This document shows positions 14,246 through 24,403 of a stretch of DNA of 64,000 bases, piece after piece. The DNA lies in contig DYEU01000032.1 of assembly GCA_020725555.1 (NCBI GenBank), positions 124,001 to 188,000 on the forward strand. The letters run 5' to 3'. Below the pieces are notes generated by a model, which did no database searches, was not told where the DNA came from, and was given only the letters and a program-made list of their open reading frames with translations. Source of the stretch: Desulfatibacillum sp. (GTDB taxonomy: Bacteria; Desulfobacterota; Desulfobacteria; Desulfobacterales; SpSt-501). The position numbers and the translations under genes were made by a program. Within the stretch, counting starts at the first letter, position 1, and each line of letters begins with the position of its first letter.

Positions 14246-16237
14246 TCAGGCGGCCGCATCCAGCTTGCGGCGGTCGGCCATGGACATGAGCTGGCGCTCG
14301 CGTGCCTTGTCGATGCCCAGCGCCTTGCGCTTCTTGTCGATGTGCTCGATCATCATGCGGGCCATCTCGTGGGGATCGGTGGCGAAGCCCCATTTCCCCA
14401 TGCCCATCTTCTCGAGCTCCTCGAAGAGGTGCTTGTGGAACTTCGTCCCCTCGACGATCGGGAAGGTGACGCCGAAGACGGTGAAGACGCCCGAGGCGAC
14501 GAAGTACTGGCCGATCGAGATCGCTTTCTCGCTCATATACTCGGGCGCGGCCCCGGCGACCGGCAAATCGGCGATGCTGTTGCCCAGCCCGCCGGTCTTC
14601 ACCATCTCGGAGGCGGCGATCAGGATGCGGCTGTTGTCCACGCAGGAGCCGATGCCGAGCACCGGCGGCATGCCGACCGTTTCGCAGACCTCCTTCAGGC
14701 CGGGCCCGGCGAGGTAGGCCGCCTCGGGGGTCGTCAGCCCGGCCTTGGTGAGGGCGATCTGCGAGCAGCCGGTCTGGAGCACGAGGACGTCGTTCTTGAT
14801 CAGCTCCTTGACGAGCTCGACGTGCACCCAGTCCTGCTTGACCCGCGGGTTGGTGCAGCCGACGACGCCGGCCACCCCGCGGATGCGGCCGTTGATGATG
14901 TTGTCGTTCAAGGGCACGTAGGAGCCGCGGAAGCTGCCGCCCAGCATGTAGTTGATGTACTCGTGGGAAAACCCGTGGACACCCGCGTTTTTGATCTTGG
15001 GGATGTCGATCTTGGCCGTCCTCGTCTTGAAGCGGCCGATCGCCTGGAGCACCACCTCGTCGGTGCACTCCTTGGGCGCGTGCTCGTGGAACTCGATGTG
15101 CAGGGCTCCCTCGATGCGGCAGCGGGGGTTGGTCGTGATGAGCTTCGTGCCGTAGCACTCGGCCACCTTGACCAGCCCCTGCTTGATGCACTGGACGTCC
15201 ACGCACATCGCGTCGACCGCGCCGGTGACGAGGATCGCCTCGGTGGACATGAAGTTGCCGGCGTGCGGGATGCCGTGGCGGACCAGCACCTCGGCCCCGG
15301 AGCAGCACATGCCGCAGAGGTTGATCCCCTTGGCGCCCGCCGCCCTGGCGGCCTCGATGAGGGTGGGTTCGTTCACCGACTCGATCATCGACTCGAAGAG
15401 GTTGGGCTCGTGGCCGTGGACGATGATGTTGACGTGGTCCTCCTTCAGGACCCCCATGTTCACCTCGATCGCCACCGGGGTCGGGATCCCGAAGAGGATG
15501 TCGGAGATCTCGGTCGCCACCATCGAGCCGCCCCAGCCGTCGGCGAGCGCCGTGCGGCTGAACTGCCGGGTGATGTTCTCGTAGTCCTGGTCGACCCCCA
15601 TGTGGGTGCGGTGCATGAGCTCCATGATCTCGCGCATGGCCCCCCGCGGGACGAGGCCGTACTTGCGCCAGGTCTCGAGCGTCTTCGGGGGCACGCGCTG
15701 GGCGAAGGGGATCTCGCCCTCGACCTGGGTGTAGGTGCGCTCGAGTTCCTCGTAGAGGTCCTTGGCGATGTCCATCATCTCGCGGCCTTCGGTTTCGATG
15801 CCGATCGATTGGGCGACCGCCTCGAGCTTCTGGGGGTTCTTGATGCGGTAGTCGGTGATGCGGCCGTGCACGACTTCGCGGAAGAGGTCGAGCATGCTCA
15901 TCCCGTGGTCGGTGTGGGCGGCGCACCCCGAGGCGACGAAACGGGCGAAGTTGCGCGCCTGGATGGTGTCGATCGTCGCCCCGCAGACGCCGACCTTGGA
16001 ATAGGGGTCCTTGGCGTTGAGGCGGCAGGGCCCCATGAAGCAGTGCTTGCAGCAGGCCGATTCGGCGCCGATCGGGCAGGCCTTCATGCTGTGGGCGCGC
16101 TCGAAGGCGGTCTCGATCCCGTCCTCGCGCGCCTTGGCGAGCATGCGGGCCGTGGCTTCGCAGGTGGTGAACTCCTTGGGATCGGGCAGATCCTTGGTTT
16201 CTTTCTTCTTGATCAGCTCCTTTTTCTCTTCCGCCAT
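14246..16237 (-). CDS. cooS: Anaerobic Ni-Fe carbon monoxide dehydrogenase catalytic subunit
   Basis: 663 residues, full length for monofunctional CODH. The spacing Cys54-x7-Cys62-Cys63-x2-Cys66-x4-Cys71-x13-Cys85 exactly matches the D- and B-cluster ligands of CooS. C-cluster features follow: SGCAAHTDHG with the His ligand, NLCGMCCSGAEVL, VVGCTNPR, QTGCSQIA and GIGSCVDNSR. The enzyme oxidises CO to CO2 with ferredoxin-type acceptors in the cytoplasm. The ATG at 16237 has GGGAGG 7-8 bases upstream, whereas a longer frame reads through non-coding leader. No cooC maturation ATPase, CooF ferredoxin, hydrogenase or acetyl-CoA synthase gene is in the window. Confidence 0.97.
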   Translation of the reverse strand: MAEEKKELIKKKETKDLPDPKEFTTCEATARMLAKAREDGIETAFERAHSMKACPIGAESACCKHCFMGPCRLNAKDPYSKVGVCGATIDTIQARNFARFVASGCAAHTDHGMSMLDLFREVVHGRITDYRIKNPQKLEAVAQSIGIETEGREMMDIAKDLYEELERTYTQVEGEIPFAQRVPPKTLETWRKYGLVPRGAMREIMELMHRTHMGVDQDYENITRQFSRTALADGWGGSMVATEISDILFGIPTPVAIEVNMGVLKEDHVNIIVHGHEPNLFESMIESVNEPTLIEAARAAGAKGINLCGMCCSGAEVLVRHGIPHAGNFMSTEAILVTGAVDAMCVDVQCIKQGLVKVAECYGTKLITTNPRCRIEGALHIEFHEHAPKECTDEVVLQAIGRFKTRTAKIDIPKIKNAGVHGFSHEYINYMLGGSFRGSYVPLNDNIINGRIRGVAGVVGCTNPRVKQDWVHVELVKELIKNDVLVLQTGCSQIALTKAGLTTPEAAYLAGPGLKEVCETVGMPPVLGIGSCVDNSRILIAASEMVKTGGLGNSIADLPVAGAAPEYMSEKAISIGQYFVASGVFTVFGVTFPIVEGTKFHKHLFEELEKMGMGKWGFATDPHEMARMMIEHIDKKRKALGIDKARERQLMSMADRRKLDAAA

Positions 16238-16351
16238 GGAACATCCTCCCTTCGTGGAAAGGCTGGGCTCGGATTTGAGGGGAATTCCCCGGGAGGGGAA
16301 GGCCGGTCGACCCGACGGCCGCGGCGCTTCGAGCGCACACGATCCCACTTC

Positions 16352-16380
16352 CGCTTACGGGAAAACACCACCCTTGTCAA
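16352..16380 (-). promoter_or_regulatory. Candidate promoter of cooS
   Basis: On the minus strand a perfect TTGACA (complement of 16375-16380) is followed by a 17-base spacer and TAAGCG (16352-16357), a weak -10. It is about 115 bp before the cooS start. A weak -10 could indicate activator dependence. A 12-bp palindrome GGGGAATTCCCC (16279-16290) lies between promoter and gene. Confidence 0.35.
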
Positions 16381-16490
16381 GATCCCGCGGCCGAAGACGC
16401 CTTGCATCCCGGGCGCCGATGGGGTAGTCCTGGGGCACCTCCCTTCCCGGACCGGAAAGGGGGGAAAACGCCCCACCCAAGGAGCGACCC

Positions 16491-16784
16491 ATGACGGAAC
16501 CCGACCCCAAGCCGGCCGCGGGGGAAAAGACCACCCCCCCGGTCAAGATCTATTCCCTGAGCACCTGCAGCCACTGCAAGGCGACCAAGAAGCTCCTCGG
16601 CGAATGCACGGTGCAGTACGAGTTCGTGGACGTCGATCTGCTCGAAGGCGAGGAGCGCCGGGCGATCATCGAGGATGTGAAGAAGTTCAACCCGCGCTGC
16701 TCCTTTCCCACGGTGATCATCGGCGACAAGGTGATCGTCGGCTACAAGGAAAAGGAGATCAAGGAGGCGCTCGGCCTGGAATGA
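16491..16784 (+). CDS. Glutaredoxin-like thiol-disulfide protein
   Basis: 97 residues. A short polar N-terminal tail precedes a single thioredoxin fold with active site CSHC (in YSLSTCSHCKATKKLL) and the cis-Pro loop FPTVIIGDKVIVGYKEKEI. It is close to NrdH/glutaredoxin-like proteins rather than glutathione-dependent Grx. ATG 16491 follows AAGGAGC. Its last codons overlap the FTR catalytic-subunit gene (ATGA), so its electron donor is probably that FTR-like protein and ultimately ferredoxin. Confidence 0.88.
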   Translation: MTEPDPKPAAGEKTTPPVKIYSLSTCSHCKATKKLLGECTVQYEFVDVDLLEGEERRAIIEDVKKFNPRCSFPTVIIGDKVIVGYKEKEIKEALGLE

Positions 16785-17113
16785 ACGCGGAAGAACTCTA
16801 CGAGACGATGCGCAAGGTCCAGGAGCCGAAGGGCTACTACTTCAACCGCGACCGCGAGCGGGTCTTCGAGCTGCTCGAGGCGCTGCTCCTGAACAAGAAG
16901 CGCTACGGCTACCCGGGGTGCCCCTGCCGCCTGCTCTGCGGGGACCGGGAGAAGGACCGCGACATCATCTGCCCCTGCGTCTACAGTGTCGCCGACATCG
17001 CCGAGTACGGCAGCTGCTACTGCAACCTCTACGTCTCCCGGGAATGGAACGAGGGCAAGATCCCCCGCGTCTACGTCCCGGAGCGGCGGCCGCCCGAGAA
17101 AATGACCTTCTGA
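16781..17113 (+). CDS. Ferredoxin:thioredoxin reductase catalytic subunit-like protein
   Basis: 110 residues matching the FTR catalytic (beta) chain: CPC, CPC and a final CYC motif that hold the [4Fe-4S] cluster and redox disulfide. Order and context (GYPGCPCRLL, ICPCVYSVADIAEYGSCYCN) fit. The spacings differ from plant FTR: 14 residues between the CPC pairs and 12 to CYC. No variable subunit gene is present, as usual for anaerobes. It would use ferredoxin electrons to reduce a disulfide partner, most likely the glutaredoxin encoded immediately upstream. Confidence 0.88.
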   Translation: MNAEELYETMRKVQEPKGYYFNRDRERVFELLEALLLNKKRYGYPGCPCRLLCGDREKDRDIICPCVYSVADIAEYGSCYCNLYVSREWNEGKIPRVYVPERRPPEKMTF

Positions 17114-17188: not shown

Positions 17189-18412
17189 CTAACCGAACTC
17201 GTCGTAGGCGATCATCTCCCGGTCCACCCCCAGGCTCTCCAGCATGCGCTCGGTCGCCCGCAGCATGGGCGGCGGCCCGCAGAGGTAGTACTCGATCTCG
17301 GTCGGGTCCTCGTGCCGGCTGAGGTAGAGGTCGTGGGCGACCTGGTGGATGAAGCCCACCGGCCCGTCCCAGCGGTCCTCCGGCAGGGGGTCGGAGAGGG
17401 CGACGGTGTAGCGGAAGTTGGGGAAGCGGCGGGCGAGCTCGCGGAATTCCTCGTCGTAGAGCATCTCCGAGCGCGACCGGGCGCCGTACCAGAAGGTGAT
17501 CTTCCGCCCGGTCTGGACACGCAGCAGCTGATCGAGGATGTGGCTGCGCATGGGGGCCATCCCGGCCCCGCCGGCGATGAAGCACATCTCGCGCTGGGTC
17601 TCCTTGATGAAAAACTCCCCGAAGGGCCCGCTCAGGACCACCCGGTCCCCCGGTTTGAGGCTGAAGACGTAGGAGGAGCCGACCCCCGGCGGGACCTCCC
17701 CCCCGGCCCCGGGCGGCGGGGTGGCGATGCGGATCGTGAAGCGGAGCAGCTCCTCCGAGGGGGTGTTCGCCATGGAGTAGGCGCGGAAGACGGGCTCCTC
17801 GGTCCTGGCGACGAGGCTCCACAGCTTGTAGCGGTCCCACATGGAGCGGTAGGTCTCGGGGATGCGGAATTCCTTGAAGGAGGCGTGGTAGGGCGGGATG
17901 TCGATCTGGACGTAGGCGCCGGACTTGAACTCGAGCTTCTGCCCCGGGTCGAGCCGGAGGACCAGCTCTTTAATGAAAGTGGCGATGTTTTCGTTCGAGA
18001 CGACCGTCGCCGTGTACTTCTTGATCTGGAAGATCTCCTCCGGGATGCGGATCCGCATGTCCTCCTTCACCTTGAGCTGGCAGGCGATGCGGATTCCTTC
18101 CCGGCGCTGCTTGCGGTTCAGGTGGGCGAGCTCGGTGGGCAGGATGTCGCGGCCGCCCGCCTCGACCTTGCACTTGCACAGGCCGCAGGAGCCCCCGCCG
18201 CCGCACCCGGAGGGAAGAAAGATGCCCTTCTCGGCGAGCGCGGCGAGCAGCGTGCGGCCGGAGGGCACGCGGATCGCCCGCGAGGGGTCGTCGTTGATCA
18301 CGATCGTGCGCTCGCCCTTCTGGACGACGCGCGCCTCGACCAGGAGCAGCGCCGCCACGAGGACGAGCAGGACGCCCGCGAAAACCGCCGCGCTGAGGAG
18401 ATACTCGTTCAT
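17189..18412 (-). CDS. nqrF: Na+-translocating NADH:quinone reductase subunit F
   Basis: 407 residues, the normal length. An N-terminal membrane helix (4-26) is followed by a ferredoxin-like [2Fe-2S] domain (CGGGGSCGLCKCKV plus the distal Cys in RIACQLKV). The FAD domain has RAYSMANTPSE, and the NADH domain has GGAGMAPMRSHI and a C-terminal CGPPPM. It is the NADH entry point of the complex. It is last in the nqrABCDEF operon on the minus strand; no nqrM or apbE follows it. Confidence 0.97.
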   Translation of the reverse strand: MNEYLLSAAVFAGVLLVLVAALLLVEARVVQKGERTIVINDDPSRAIRVPSGRTLLAALAEKGIFLPSGCGGGGSCGLCKCKVEAGGRDILPTELAHLNRKQRREGIRIACQLKVKEDMRIRIPEEIFQIKKYTATVVSNENIATFIKELVLRLDPGQKLEFKSGAYVQIDIPPYHASFKEFRIPETYRSMWDRYKLWSLVARTEEPVFRAYSMANTPSEELLRFTIRIATPPPGAGGEVPPGVGSSYVFSLKPGDRVVLSGPFGEFFIKETQREMCFIAGGAGMAPMRSHILDQLLRVQTGRKITFWYGARSRSEMLYDEEFRELARRFPNFRYTVALSDPLPEDRWDGPVGFIHQVAHDLYLSRHEDPTEIEYYLCGPPPMLRATERMLESLGVDREMIAYDEFG

Positions 18413-18419
18413 CGGCCCC

Positions 18420-19028
18420 TCAAAGCGAGATCCCCGCGAAGAGCATGAAGCCGATCGCGATCAGTCCCGTGGTGATCATGCTGATCCCGAAGCCCTGCAA
18501 GCCGCGGGGCACGAGGGCGTAGCGCAGCTTCTTCTGGATCGCCGCCATAGCGACGATCGCCAGGCACCAGCCCACCCCCGAGCCCGTGCCGTAGACGAGG
18601 GTCTCGGCGAAGGAATAATTTCTCTCCACCATGAAGAGCGAGGCGCCCAGGATCGCGCAGTTGACGGTGATGAGCGGGAGGTAGACGCCGAGCGCCGTGT
18701 AGAGCGCGGGCGAGTAACGGTCGATCACCATCTCGATCGCCTGGACGATGGCCGCGATCTGGGCGATGAAGACGATGAGCTTGAGGAAACTCAAGTTCGC
18801 CCCCGGCAGCCCGGCCCAGGCGAGGGCGCCGGGGGCAAGGAGGCCGTGGTAGATGAGCCAGTTCACCGGGGTGGTGAGGGCCATCACGAACACGACCGCC
18901 ACCCCGAGGCCCGCCGCCGTGGCGAGGTTCCGCGAAACCGCGAGAAAAGAGCACATCCCGAGAAAATAGGAAAGCAGGATGTTGCCCACGAAGACGGAGT
19001 TGAGGGCGAGGCCGATCAGGTTTTCCAC
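18420..19028 (-). CDS. nqrE: Na+-translocating NADH:quinone reductase subunit E
   Basis: 202 residues, six membrane helices, with the two conserved half-channel cysteines in LGMCSFLAV and TVNCAILGA that hold the intramembrane iron centre shared with NqrD. The GTG start at 19028 is chosen because it gives the typical N-terminus ([16 protein letters not shown]) and lies 2 bases after the nqrD stop with GAGAGGAAG upstream. A longer frame would read into nqrD out of frame. Confidence 0.95.
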
Positions 19029-19030
19029 GC

Positions 19031-19678
19031 CTACTTCCTCTCCAGGAGGGTGTGTTCCAGCCAGACGAACAGCCCGATCATGATGAAGGCCCCGGGCGCG
19101 AGCACGAGCAAGCCGTTGTTCACGTAGCCCGCGCGGTAGAAGGCCTCGGGGATCACGGTTGCGCCGAAGAGCTTGCCGGAGCCCAGCAGCTCGCGGAAAA
19201 AGGCGACCCCCAGCAGGACCGAGGAGTAGCCCACGCCGTTCGCCAGCCCGTCGAGAAAGGCCTGCCCCGGCGGGTGGTTGAGGGCGTAGGCCTCGGAGCG
19301 GCCGAGCACGATGCAGTTGGTGATGATGAGGCCGACGAAGACCGAGAGCTGCTTGCTCACGTCGAAGAGAAAGGCCTTCAGGAGCTCGTCGGCCAGGATC
19401 ACGAGGGTGGCGATCACCGCCACCTGGACGATGATGCGGATGTTGCGCGGGATCGCCTTGCGCAGAAGCGACACCGCGAGGCTCGAGCCGGCGGTCACCC
19501 CGGTCAGGGCGAGGCTCATCACGAGCGCGGTCTCGAGCTGCACGGTGACGGCGAGCGAGGAGCAGATCCCCAGGATCTGCTTGGAGATGGGGTTCGCCCG
19601 CCAGAGCGCTTTCACGATCTCCTTGTAAGCGGCCGTGCGCCGCACGGCGGCCCACGGCCTGGCGGCGGCGGTGGTCAT
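19031..19678 (-). CDS. nqrD: Na+-translocating NADH:quinone reductase subunit D
   Basis: 215 residues with six predicted helices. Iron-centre cysteines lie in LGICSSLAV and ITNCIVLGR, paralogous to those of NqrE. ATG 19678 has AAAGGAG 8-9 bases upstream; a GTG three codons earlier would overlap that site. The order A-B-C-D-E-F and the short intergenic distances show a single operon. Confidence 0.95.
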
Positions 19679-19694
19679 CGACGGCACTCCTTTC

Positions 19695-20429
19695 TCAGGG
19701 CCGCGCGGGAGGCAGCGTTTTCTCCCACTCGGCGATCTGGTTGCGCCGGAAGCGGATGGAGACCGGCTCGTAGCGGCTCAGGGAGTCGCGGATGCCGGCG
19801 GTGAGAAACCGGCCGGTCATCGTCGCCCCGCTGATCCCGTCCACGTAGTGCGGCCGCTTGGACTCGGGGACCCCCTCCTCGACCTTGCCCTTGGCGATCG
19901 CCACCGAGACGAAGGTCCCCTCCCGCGTGGCGATCTTCTTCCCCACCCAGTTGCGGCGGAACCACTCCTTTTCGATCTCGCCCCCCAGCCCGGGGGTCTC
20001 CGCGTGACGGGTCACGGCAAAGCCCTTGACCGTCTGCCCGTCGCGGTCGATCGCGAGGTAGGCCTGGATCGGGCCCCACAGCCCCCGGGAGTCGATGGGG
20101 ACGATGTAGCCGCGGACCTCGCCCTCCTCCTGGATCAGGTAGAGGGGGAGGCCGTCCGGCCGCGCCCTTTCGGCGCCCTCGAGGATCCGGCCCTCCGGGT
20201 CGACCCTCAGCTCCCGGATCCGGCCGGCGTAGAGCGCCTCGACCTCCGCCTCCCCGACTTTCCGCCCCGGCTCGATCAGGCCGGCCGCCAGGAGGACGTT
20301 GCGGTGCCGGTCGATGAGGATGTTCCTCTCCTGGTAGGGCCTCAATCCGCTCGAGGCCGCCGTGAGGAGCAGGCTGCAGACCACGCAGAGCACCGCGGTG
20401 AACAGAAGACTCTTGGCGCTACCGGACAT
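19695..20429 (-). CDS. nqrC: Na+-translocating NADH:quinone reductase subunit C
   Basis: 244 residues. One N-terminal membrane helix (about 8-28) and a periplasmic FMN-binding domain carrying GISGATMTGR, whose Thr is the covalent FMN attachment site. PGLGGEIE precedes it as in the family. It overlaps nqrB by 11 bp. Flavinylation needs ApbE, which must be encoded elsewhere. Confidence 0.96.
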   Translation of the reverse strand: MSGSAKSLLFTAVLCVVCSLLLTAASSGLRPYQERNILIDRHRNVLLAAGLIEPGRKVGEAEVEALYAGRIRELRVDPEGRILEGAERARPDGLPLYLIQEEGEVRGYIVPIDSRGLWGPIQAYLAIDRDGQTVKGFAVTRHAETPGLGGEIEKEWFRRNWVGKKIATREGTFVSVAIAKGKVEEGVPESKRPHYVDGISGATMTGRFLTAGIRDSLSRYEPVSIRFRRNQIAEWEKTLPPARP

Positions 20430-21609: not shown

Positions 21610-22962
21610 TCAGTCCATCTCCGCGCGAAAGGCTTCTTTCGCCTGCCGCAGGGCCTGCAGGAGCTCGATCTTGGAGGGGCAGACGAGCGAGCAGAGCCCG
21701 CATTCGACGCAGTCGAGAAGGCCGTGGGCAAGCGCCTCCTCGGTCTCCCCGGCGAGCACCGCCTTGTAGGTGAGCTGGGGCAGGATGTCCACCGGGCAGA
21801 CCCGGGCGCAGAAGGCGCATTGGATGCAGGCGCGGATCCCGCCGTGGCGGTTGCAGTCCATGGGGTAGGAGGCCGCCGGGTGCCAGGAGGAAAGGAAGGC
21901 GCGGGAATAGCTCGGTTTGCGACGGCCGGGAAGCATCCACTCGAGGAACCCCCCGGGGCGGGCGCCCTCGGGAAGAAGCGTGAGCGCCTCCTCCGGCAGT
22001 GCCAGGAAAGAATCGGCCGAAGCGGCCGTTCCGGTGAGCACCCCGCCCGCCACATAGCGCAGCGGCTCGCCGGAAACCTCCCGGCCGGCGGCCAGCTCGG
22101 CGAGGGGTGCGCCGAGGCGCACCTCCAGGTGGCCCGGCGGGGAGGCGCCGGGTCCGCCCAGGGCGATGACGCGTCGGGTCGGGTGGCGGCCCTCCTGCAG
22201 GAACTCGGCGATCAGCAGCAGGTCCGGCCCCGCGACCATCCAGGCGGCGCGCTCCTCGGGCCGGCCGAGCCTGCGGTAGAGGAGCACGCCCGGATCGTGG
22301 GCGGGGTAGCGCCCCGCGACCACGCAGGAGAGCAGGGGGGCCACCTCGGCGATCGTCTCCGCCCCCCCGGCGCAGGCGGTCACGACCGGCGGCCGTCCGG
22401 TCAGCCGTTCGAGAACGCGGAGCCCGAAGCGCAGCCGCTCGAGCCGGCCCGCGAGGTAGACCCGGGGGTCGGGGTGGAAGGGTTCGAGGTTGTCGAGGAA
22501 GACCACCACGGCGGGCGGCCGCCGGTCGAGGGCCGGGGGTTCGCGGAAGGGAAGCTCGCGGATGAGGCTCCAGAGGCCGCCCGCAACGATCCGCCGGCCG
22601 AGCTCCGCGGGGTCGATCGCCTGGAGATCCGCCTCGTCGAGCCGCGGGAACTCCTCCGCCTCTTCCTCCTCGTCGAGGTCGATCACGACCTCTTGCAGGC
22701 GGCGGCGCGGGCCGAAATTCACGGCGCTCACGCACCCGCCGCCGGGGGAGAGAAAGCGCAGCTCCGGCCGGCGCTTGTCGGCGAAGAGAAGCGAGCCGAT
22801 CTTCACGCGGTCGCCGGGCTTGACGGCAAGGCGCGGCTTGAGAAACGGCAGCCGGCCGGCGACGGCCGCCACCCGGCGGGGGGCGGCGGGGGTGTCAAGC
22901 GTCGCGGCGGGCCTTCCGCCGATCCGCAGCGTGAAGCCGTTTTTTGCGTGCAGGCGGTCCAT
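21610..22962 (-). CDS. nqrA: NqrA-like subunit retaining two [4Fe-4S] ferredoxin motifs
   Basis: 450 residues in the nqrA position. The N-terminal barrel-sandwich domain begins NGFTLRIGGRPAA. A middle NqrA/RnfC-like region includes FLSPGGGCVSAV, and then an SLBB-type segment. Unlike textbook NqrA, the C-terminus has two complete ferredoxin motifs: Cys379-x2-Cys382-x2-Cys385-x3-Cys389-Pro and Cys418-x2-Cys421-x2-Cys424-x3-Cys428-Pro. They flank LPQLTYKAVLAGETEEA, which corresponds to the LPTLLxRDLLAGDT segment of NqrA. This is what an RnfC-like ancestor would have. The start is set at ATG 22962 by N-terminal similarity; no strong Shine-Dalgarno is seen. Confidence 0.9.
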   Translation of the reverse strand: MDRLHAKNGFTLRIGGRPAATLDTPAAPRRVAAVAGRLPFLKPRLAVKPGDRVKIGSLLFADKRRPELRFLSPGGGCVSAVNFGPRRRLQEVVIDLDEEEEAEEFPRLDEADLQAIDPAELGRRIVAGGLWSLIRELPFREPPALDRRPPAVVVFLDNLEPFHPDPRVYLAGRLERLRFGLRVLERLTGRPPVVTACAGGAETIAEVAPLLSCVVAGRYPAHDPGVLLYRRLGRPEERAAWMVAGPDLLLIAEFLQEGRHPTRRVIALGGPGASPPGHLEVRLGAPLAELAAGREVSGEPLRYVAGGVLTGTAASADSFLALPEEALTLLPEGARPGGFLEWMLPGRRKPSYSRAFLSSWHPAASYPMDCNRHGGIRACIQCAFCARVCPVDILPQLTYKAVLAGETEEALAHGLLDCVECGLCSLVCPSKIELLQALRQAKEAFRAEMD

Positions 22963-23067: not shown

Positions 23068-23215
23068 CTCCCGCGGCAAGGGCCGCCGGGCCTTGACTTT
23101 TGCCCGCGCAATGAAGATGTAAACGTAGCCTTGCGGCAATACGGTTGACCGGCCCTTTTGCCGGCCGGCTGCCTCGATGCGGGGGAACCCACCGAAATAC
23201 CGGCAGGGGGAAGGC

Positions 23216-24403
23216 ATGGTCGAAGACTGCAAGATGCCGATGGACACGGGGTTGCGCGGCGTCGTCGTCGCCAGCACGCGGATCGGCGAAGTGGACGGCA
23301 AGAACGGGCGGCTGCTCTACCGCGGCTACCGCATCCAGGACCTCGCCCAGGCGACCTACGAGGAGGTCGCCCACCTGCTGCTCCTCGAGCGGCTGCCCTC
23401 GCGGCCGGAGCTCGAGCGCTTCGCGGAGGAGATCCGGGCCTTGCGCGAGGTACCGCCGGCGCTGCTCGAGGCCCTGAGGACCCGTCCGGCGGACGCCCAC
23501 CCCATGGACGTCCTGCAGGCCGCAACAGCCATGCTCGGCCATCACGACCCCGACACCCGCGAGGCAAGCCGCGAGGCCGCCCTGCGCATGGCCAAGCGGC
23601 TGATCGCGCGCTTTCCGACCGTGGTCGCCGCCTGGCACCGCATCCGCAGCGGCGAGCCGGTCATCCCGCCCTCGAGCCGCCTCGGCCACGCCGCCAACTT
23701 CCTCTACATGCTGAGCGGCGCGGAGCCCGACCCGGAATTCGCCCGGGCGCTCGACATCGCGCTCGTGCTCCACGCCGAGCACGCCTTCAACGCCTCGACC
23801 TTCGCCGCGCGCGAGGTCGCCTCCACCCAGGCCCACATGTACGCCGCGACGGCGGCCGCGGTCGGCTCGCTCTCCGGGCCGCTCCACGGCGGGGCGAACG
23901 CCCGGGTGATGCAGATGCTGCTGGCGGTCGAGCGGCCCGAGCGGGCGCGGGCCTACGTGGAGGCGGAGCTCGAGGCGGGTCGCAAGATCTTCGGGCTGGG
24001 CCATGCGGTCTACGACGTCGACGACCCCCGGGCGCACATCCTCGCCCCGCTTTCGCGAACGCTGGGCGAGAAGCGCGGCGATCTCCGCTGGTACGAGCTG
24101 TCGCGCGAGATCGAGGCCGCCGCCAAGGAGGTCTTCCGCCGGCGCAAGAACGCCGACATCCCGGTGAACGTCGACTTCTACAGCGCCTCCCTCTACCACT
24201 ACCTGGGGATCCCGATCGACCTCTTCACCCCGGTCTTCGCCATCTCCAGGGTCGCCGGCTGGACCGCCCACATCATCGAGGAGCAATTCGCCGGCGCGGC
24301 CCCCAAGGCCGTGCTCTACCGGCCCGAGTCCCGCTACGTCGGCGACTACTGCGGCCCCGCGGAGTGCGCTTTCGTGCCGCTCGAAGAGCGGGCCCCGGCC
24401 TGA
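23216..24403 (+). CDS. Citrate synthase / 2-methylcitrate synthase family
   Basis: 395 residues, short prokaryotic citrate synthase type. The three catalytic residues are present: His in GPLHGGANARV, His in GLGHAVYDVDDPRA and Asp in NVDFYSASLYH. It condenses acetyl-CoA (or propionyl-CoA) with oxaloacetate; motifs do not exclude methylcitrate synthase, but no prp genes are nearby. ATG 23216 is preferred (AGGGGGAAGG upstream) over an ATG 13 codons earlier. It is divergent from nqr and starts a long plus-strand gene run. Confidence 0.93.
   Translation: MVEDCKMPMDTGLRGVVVASTRIGEVDGKNGRLLYRGYRIQDLAQATYEEVAHLLLLERLPSRPELERFAEEIRALREVPPALLEALRTRPADAHPMDVLQAATAMLGHHDPDTREASREAALRMAKRLIARFPTVVAAWHRIRSGEPVIPPSSRLGHAANFLYMLSGAEPDPEFARALDIALVLHAEHAFNASTFAAREVASTQAHMYAATAAAVGSLSGPLHGGANARVMQMLLAVERPERARAYVEAELEAGRKIFGLGHAVYDVDDPRAHILAPLSRTLGEKRGDLRWYELSREIEAAAKEVFRRRKNADIPVNVDFYSASLYHYLGIPIDLFTPVFAISRVAGWTAHIIEEQFAGAAPKAVLYRPESRYVGDYCGPAECAFVPLEERAPA

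What the first reader, a model, noticed from the sequence alone, without database searches (positions are those of the whole stretch)
21610..22962. NqrA that keeps two [4Fe-4S] ferredoxin motifs
In Vibrio-type NqrA the corresponding C-terminus has lost most cysteines. Here both CxxCxxCxxxCP motifs are intact around the LPQLTYKAVLAGE segment, in an otherwise normal nqrABCDEF operon with NqrF rather than RnfB. It could be an evolutionary intermediate between Rnf and Nqr, or an Nqr able to exchange electrons with ferredoxin.
Basis: partly seen in the sequence, partly recalled or inferred. Interest (0 to 1): 0.75.

Follow-up and report, generated by a model that had tools for sequence, protein, structure and literature searches.

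The report
Sodium pump with extra iron-sulfur wire
A whole order of sulfate-reducing bacteria carries a version of the Na+-pumping respiratory enzyme NQR whose A subunit, elsewhere cofactor-free, keeps the two iron-sulfur cluster sites of its RNF ancestor, which records how one pump turned into the other and suggests a second electron route that can be tested.

Summary
The window (a Desulfobacterales sulfate reducer) has a complete nqrABCDEF operon. NqrA (450 aa) has eight cysteines in two CxxCxxCxxxC motifs that align without gaps with the cluster ligands of RnfC. NqrB-F match Vibrio cholerae NQR at the cofactor positions inspected. It is not a one-off: all eight cysteines are invariant in 78 of 78 aligned sequences and present in 40 of 40 further loci checked; only 5 of 186 NqrA-positive genomes of the order show canonical-type scores. 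The Fe-S segment is the most conserved part of this NqrA (82% against 57%). The RnfC FMN loop is gone. Trees of the membrane core, and of NqrA without the Fe-S domain, place this clade as sister to the sampled cofactor-free NQRs. A rarer Rnf/Nqr hybrid (2 of 395 phylum genomes) with both motifs plus an NqrF branches just outside. So clusters were inherited from RNF, survived NqrF recruitment, and were lost in the canonical branch. I found no description in the library searched; published accounts call NqrA cofactor-free. Function is inferred: a one-electron port between NqrB riboflavin and a soluble carrier, probably ferredoxin-like. Direction and partner are unproven.

The parts
21610..22962 (-). 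nqrA, 450 aa, Fe-S type (NqrA domains plus C-terminal dicluster ferredoxin domain)
21796..21828 (-). first [4Fe-4S] motif, C379-x2-C382-x2-C385-x3-C389
21679..21711 (-). second [4Fe-4S] motif, C418-x2-C421-x2-C424-x3-C428
20419..21603 (-). nqrB, with the N-terminal extension that bears the quinone site in V. cholerae
19695..20429 (-). nqrC, covalent-FMN motif SGAT kept
19031..19687 (-). nqrD, both intramembrane Fe-S cysteines kept
18420..19034 (-). nqrE, both intramembrane Fe-S cysteines kept (start codon approximate)
17189..18412 (-). nqrF, TM helix + 2Fe-2S + FAD/NADH domain; no rnfB
16781..17113 (+). neighbour: ferredoxin-thioredoxin reductase beta chain, convergent (18 of 31 testable loci)
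14246..16348 (-). neighbour: anaerobic CO dehydrogenase catalytic subunit (13 of 31 testable loci)
23177..24403 (+). neighbour: citrate synthase, divergent (26 of 40 testable loci)

Best explanation
This is a variant Na+-NQR of Desulfobacterales that keeps the two [4Fe-4S] clusters of the RNF output subunit in NqrA. SHOWN by sequence: the cluster ligands are intact and strictly conserved, the RnfC FMN loop is gone, NqrF and the quinone-type NqrB are present, and the clade is sister to the sampled cofactor-free NQRs. INFERRED: electrons follow the usual NQR path (NADH, NqrF FAD and 2Fe-2S, NqrD/E 2Fe-2S, NqrC FMN, NqrB FMN, NqrB riboflavin) and menaquinone is reduced at NqrB. Riboflavin is also in contact with the proximal NqrA cluster, as RnfD riboflavin is with RnfC (11.7 A in C. 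tetanomorphum Rnf, PMC9588780). With no FMN or NAD site beyond, the distal cluster meets a soluble one-electron carrier, most likely ferredoxin-like, so NqrA is a side port of the pump. The port may run outward, or inward from reduced ferredoxin towards menaquinone; direction is not settled. Cluster binding and ancestral retention about 0.9; the side port about 0.45.
For: Eight cysteines at exact RnfC spacing, gapless over 68 residues to 7zc6_C; invariant in 78 of 78; the motif in 125 of 137 NqrA-like ORFs of fetched loci, the 12 others being canonical or frameshifted, and in 40 of 40 more. Fe-S segment 374-432 has mean majority identity 0.815 against 0.573 for residues 1-356. NqrB-F cofactor motifs kept. 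Trees: Fe-S clade 100/99, canonical 93/84, hybrid outside at 100/100; NqrB-C-D-E-F 100/100 and 98/95; NqrA residues 1-356 100/98 and 99/94. Vestigial cysteines in canonical NqrA. Model pLDDT 90.2, best folds NqrA (Z 43) then RnfC (Z 28). Fe-S-only RnfC without the FMN loop is common in the same phylum, so an FMN-less Fe-S output subunit occurs in a sister pump. Neighbours FTR beta and CO dehydrogenase are ferredoxin-linked enzymes.
Against: No spectroscopy, no structure of this complex, no measured activity. No conserved partner gene inside the operon; the ferredoxin-linked neighbours are convergent or separate and not universal (18 of 31, 13 of 31). Invariant R377, K400 and K431 are shared with, or K/R in, canonical NqrA, so they give no sign of a ferredoxin docking patch. 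The AU tests do not reject the Fe-S clade being sister to Bacteroidota NQR alone (p 0.26) or to the other canonical NQRs alone (p 0.078). NqrB may suffice for menaquinone reduction, which would leave the clusters with another role.
Confidence: 0.6

Rival explanations
1. Electron reservoir: the two NqrA clusters only store electrons next to riboflavin, so that one-electron riboflavin can deliver two electrons to low-potential menaquinone, with no outside partner.
For: No partner gene in the operon; FMN and NAD site lost; NqrB quinone-site extension kept.
Against: Canonical NQRs of menaquinone users (Bacteroidota) do without the clusters (menaquinone use seen in the PMC10739449 abstract). A mere buffer would not obviously need two clusters reaching into the cytoplasm.
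Confidence: 0.27
2. Structural clusters: they hold the NqrA C-terminal domain on NqrB and carry no catalytic electrons.
For: Canonical NqrA has the same overall fold without clusters and is thought to stabilise NqrB/NqrF (PMC12174285, passages).
Against: Canonical NqrA shows that the fold needs no clusters; conservation is concentrated in the cluster domain.
Confidence: 0.1
3. Secondary gain: a canonical NqrA acquired its C-terminal ferredoxin domain from rnfC by recombination.
For: rnf and nqr coexist in the same genome, so material was at hand; AU tests leave some room on the tree.
Against: The Fe-S domain alone forms its own clade (99/91), not nested in the local RnfCs (only 70 columns); canonical NqrA has remnants of motif 2; the hybrid outside both clades has the clusters.
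Confidence: 0.04
4. RNF-like enzyme mislabelled: NqrA here works as RnfC and reduces NAD+ through FMN.
For: C-terminal domain scores as RnfC.
Against: The G-x-GG-A-x-FPT FMN loop is absent and the NqrA-type sequence stands in its place; no RnfB in the operon; NqrF present.
Confidence: 0.03

Closest known systems
Na+-NQR of Vibrio cholerae (e.g. PDB 7xk3, 8a1u)
   Same: Operon order nqrABCDEF; NqrB-F cofactor motifs; overall NqrA fold (TM-score 0.88, Z 43)
   Different: V. cholerae NqrA has no redox cofactor: motif 1 lost, motif 2 reduced to two cysteines; the present NqrA has both motifs intact
RNF complex, RnfC subunit (C. tetanomorphum 7zc6, A. woodii 9eri, A. vinelandii 8ahx)
   Same: C-terminal dicluster domain, eight cysteines at the same spacing, gapless alignment
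   Different: No FMN loop, NqrA-type N-terminal and middle domains, NqrF in place of RnfB
Rnf2-type RNF of Desulfobacteraceae (RnfC without NAD/FMN domain; described in PMC5109826 passages, and PMC11887813 passages)
   Same: Fe-S-only output subunit without FMN loop, acceptor unknown
   Different: Belongs to RNF with a large RnfB; the present complex is NQR with NqrF and a quinone-type NqrB
Rnf/Nqr hybrid operon of family f96 (loci L174, L175; found here)
   Same: Fe-S-bearing A subunit together with an NqrF (over the curated nqrF cut-off) and an extended NqrB-like subunit
   Different: A subunit scores below both the rnfC and nqrA cut-offs and keeps a degenerate FMN-loop segment

Membership tests
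Na+-NQR complex | operon of six genes nqrABCDEF with NqrF and without RnfB | tested here: met
   NqrB, C, D, E and F each above the curated cut-off
Na+-NQR complex | 2Fe-2S, FAD and NADH domains in NqrF; FMN-Thr motif in NqrC; intramembrane Fe-S cysteines in NqrD/E; quinone-site extension in NqrB | tested here: met
   (sequence motifs only)
Na+-NQR complex | Na+-dependent NADH:quinone oxidoreductase activity | not testable with these tools
   no experiment
canonical NqrA (TIGR01936 equivalog) | score at or above the curated cut-off | tested here: not met
   248.7 bits against 321.05; NF003761 366.2 against 450
canonical NqrA (TIGR01936 equivalog) | NqrA domain architecture | tested here: met
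   PF05896, PF24836, PF11973 above cut-off; fold Z 43 to 8a1y_A
canonical NqrA (TIGR01936 equivalog) | no redox cofactor (as stated in PMC4014512 and PMC12174285) | tested here: not met
   two complete [4Fe-4S] motifs; cofactor itself not measured
RnfC / RNF | C-terminal two-cluster ferredoxin domain | tested here: met
RnfC / RNF | FMN-binding loop GxGGAxFPT | tested here: not met
   absent, replaced by NqrA-type sequence
RnfC / RNF | RnfB in the operon | tested here: not met
   nqrF in its place
RnfC / RNF | core subunits branch with RNF | tested here: not met
   branch with NQR at 100/100

The most novel reading that the evidence does not exclude
NQR began as an NADH-driven Na+ pump whose outlet was the two-cluster A subunit inherited from RNF; quinone reduction at NqrB was added while the clusters still worked, and Desulfobacterales still run this three-way pump, exchanging electrons between NADH, menaquinone and a ferredoxin-class carrier. 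The family f96 hybrids are a still earlier stage. Cofactor-free NQR is the derived, simplified form.
Probability: 0.33. Interest if true: 0.86.

Novelty: new variant of a known kind. Interest (0 to 1): 0.72.

Why it matters
The published scheme (PMC4014512, passages) has RnfB lost first, RnfC then losing its function and its cysteines, and NqrF recruited next. Here are living complexes in which NqrF is present and the clusters are intact and strictly kept, so the order of events is different: NqrF came in before the clusters went. It also questions the general statement that NqrA has no redox role, since the cluster domain is the most constrained part of NqrA in a dominant order of marine sulfate reducers. 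If the clusters carry electrons, these bacteria have a direct link between the NADH/menaquinone Na+ pump and a cytosolic carrier pool, a missing piece of their energy budget, and the old question of what NqrA is for becomes testable by comparison of the two forms.

Tried and rejected
Rejected: chance motif; sequencing or single-genome artefact; RnfC mislabelled as NqrA; recent transfer of the Fe-S domain from local rnfC. Tried without result: a partner gene inside the operon; NqrM in the own genome, no hit, but no control genome rang either, so this shows nothing; cluster geometry, because model coordinates were not at hand. Searches contained short place-holder stretches of no use.

Rows dropped before counts: of 80 named loci, L117, L127 (frameshifted) and L134 (truncated N-terminus) were left out of alignment A2; rows entered A2 only if the eight-cysteine motif was present, so its invariance says nothing about how often the motif is lost (the tallies do). 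The 40 loci were picked by me from the listed non-canonical rows. The 137 ORFs include repeats of the same place (for example L001/L024/L039, L007/L033) and the two f96 hybrids. L171, L173 and L086 were left out of the core trees, L184 and L195 also out of the careful one.

Full report
WHAT IS THERE. The window lies in a 3.6-Mb genome (G000:C30) with dsrA and ApbE; its closest named relatives are uncultured Desulfobacterales, so it is a sulfate reducer of that order. On the minus strand nqrA-nqrB-nqrC-nqrD-nqrE-nqrF run from 22962 to 17189. NqrB, C, D, E and F exceed their curated NCBIfam cut-offs; NqrA does not (248.7 against 321.05 bits), although its NqrA domains are found above the Pfam cut-offs, followed by 4Fe-4S dicluster models.

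THE EIGHT CYSTEINES. C379, C382, C385, C389 and C418, C421, C424, C428 form two CxxCxxCxxxC motifs. Residues 378-445 align without gaps with solved RnfC (7zc6_C, E 3.5e-15), whereas V. cholerae NqrA has none of motif 1 and two cysteines of motif 2. AlphaFold2 gives a confident model (mean pLDDT 90.2, 71-86 in the C-terminal blocks) whose best structural matches are V. cholerae NqrA (Z 43.3) and then RnfC (Z about 28).

HOW COMMON. Over 335 genomes of the order (at least 80% complete) 186 have an NqrA at E <= 1e-40; only five show canonical-type scores above 500 bits, all listed others being at or under 329 bits. At sequence level: 23 of the 25 NqrA loci L003-L027 have all eight cysteines, one is canonical and one frameshifted; 125 of 137 NqrA-like ORFs in all loci fetched by then (repeats included), the 12 others being canonical or frameshifted; and 40 of 40 further loci chosen from the non-canonical rows. 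Two genomes, G008 and G620, hold a canonical copy as well as a second NqrA; for G620 the second was read and has the eight cysteines (L236). In a sample of 297 genomes of the phylum, outside the order, one Fe-S form (G133, 8% contamination) and four canonical ones were seen among strong NqrA hits. I could not scan other phyla evenly.

CONSTRAINT. In 78 aligned sequences the eight cysteines are 8 of 30 invariant columns. Mean majority identity is 0.815 in residues 374-432, 0.573 in 1-356 and about 0.55 on either side of the Fe-S segment. So the cluster domain is the best kept part. This is the reverse of what has been said of NqrA in general, namely that it is the variable subunit under relaxed constraint (PMC4014512, passages).

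THE REST OF THE COMPLEX. NqrB keeps the N-terminal extension of quinone-reducing NQR, NqrC the SGAT motif, NqrD and NqrE their membrane Fe-S cysteines, NqrF the 2Fe-2S, FAD and NADH parts. In subunit A the RnfC loop GxGGAxFPT is absent; the NqrA-type GGLW..R.LPFR stands there, and the NqrA-type stretch RPG..K.SYSR.FLS before the Fe-S domain is present and missing from RnfC. Subunit A is thus NqrA for residues 1-373 and RnfC-like in the Fe-S domain.

PHYLOGENY. Core tree (NqrB+D+E, RNF as root): RNF, then the f96 hybrids (branch to the rest of NQR 100/100), then Fe-S NQR (100/99) and canonical NQR (93/84) as sisters. NqrB-C-D-E-F rooted on one hybrid: 100/100 and 98/95 (the hybrid is a long branch). 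NqrA residues 1-356, without the trait: 100/98 and 99/94. Against a firm claim: the AU test does not reject Fe-S NQR with Bacteroidota alone (p 0.26) nor with the other canonical NQRs alone (p 0.078); canonical plus hybrid is rejected (p 9e-11). With RnfC and the hybrid both bearing clusters and canonical NqrA bearing decayed motif 2 (LC.FVC.GK and its further decayed forms), retention is favoured over regain on any of these trees. The Fe-S domain by itself forms its own clade (99/91, 70 columns), not inside the RnfCs of the phylum.

THE HYBRID. G135 and G100 (family f96) have an operon of a 487-aa subunit A (221 bits to rnfC, cut-off 246; 97 to nqrA, cut-off 321), an extended NqrB-like subunit, C, D and, in G135, E and an NqrF above the nqrF cut-off (311 against 295 bits); the G100 contig ends after D. 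Subunit A has both Fe-S motifs, the NqrA-type SYSR..LS stretch and a degenerate FMN loop. It was found in 2 of 395 genomes of the phylum.

MECHANISM. In C. tetanomorphum Rnf the electron passes from RnfD riboflavin to the near RnfC cluster over 11.7 A, then to the second cluster and FMN (PMC9588780, passages). Here the FMN is gone. Riboflavin can still pass electrons to menaquinone at NqrB and, if the geometry holds, to the NqrA clusters. My choice is that the clusters are a side port to a soluble one-electron carrier, likely ferredoxin-like. Supporting, weakly: FMN-less Fe-S RnfC is common in the phylum (15 of 21 phylum RnfCs examined, besides the own genome's, lack the loop by a loose pattern) and is described as Rnf2 with an unknown acceptor (PMC5109826, passages; PMC11887813, passages); the neighbouring genes include ferredoxin-thioredoxin reductase beta (18 of 31 testable loci) and CO dehydrogenase (13 of 31). 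These neighbours are not in the operon and are not universal. Direction is open: as riboflavin of NQR works near the quinone (recalled, no call), inward flow from reduced ferredoxin to menaquinone would be downhill but would bypass the pump; outward flow to ferredoxin would cost energy. A reservoir role is the main rival.

LITERATURE. Ten sources were met in listings or passages; the ones read by passage on NqrA (PMC4014512, PMC12174285, PMC9588780, PMC10643135) state or imply a cofactor-free NqrA. PMC4014512 saw Desulfobacteraceae sequences at the base of its NQR trees, called the position anomalous and read it as transfer from Chlorobi. PMC2702500, PMC4046663, PMC5109826, PMC10052568 and PMC11887813 (passages) mention Nqr in such bacteria without its cysteines. 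No paper describing Fe-S motifs in NqrA turned up in searches; the library is open-access only, and one relevant review was not held.

Noticed in passing
L175 2143-7621 (-), L174 893-4722 (+): Rnf/Nqr hybrid operon: Fe-S-bearing RnfC/NqrA-like subunit with an NqrF-like reductase; multihaem cytochrome genes on both sides in L175.
   Followed up: partly
L195 / L002 (own genome, C12): The same genome has an rnf locus whose RnfC lacks the FMN loop but keeps the eight cysteines; most RnfCs sampled in the phylum are alike.
   Followed up: partly
window 14246-17113: CO dehydrogenase catalytic gene and a convergent ferredoxin-thioredoxin reductase beta gene downstream of nqrF; a glutaredoxin-like gene follows in 17 of 31 related loci.
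   Followed up: partly
upstream of nqrA in related loci: An oxidative-stress island (PerR-like regulator 23 of 40, desulfoferrodoxin 14 of 40, rubrerythrin 11 of 40) next to citrate synthase.
   Followed up: no
L065, L086, L092: L065 (a complete chromosome) shows nqrAB only and L086 and L092 nqrABC only, with room for more; assembly error or split operon not decided.
   Followed up: no
G000: No NqrM (PF04400) hit although NQR needs it in other bacteria (recalled); the search had no ringing control.
   Followed up: no
L171, L173: Alphaproteobacterial plasmid operons named NQR with a short NqrB (about 250 aa) and a 416-421-aa NqrA without Fe-S motifs.
   Followed up: no
L198-L208: In family f35 motif 2 often reads DCCRC or DCCQC, an extra cysteine beside the first ligand.
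   Followed up: no
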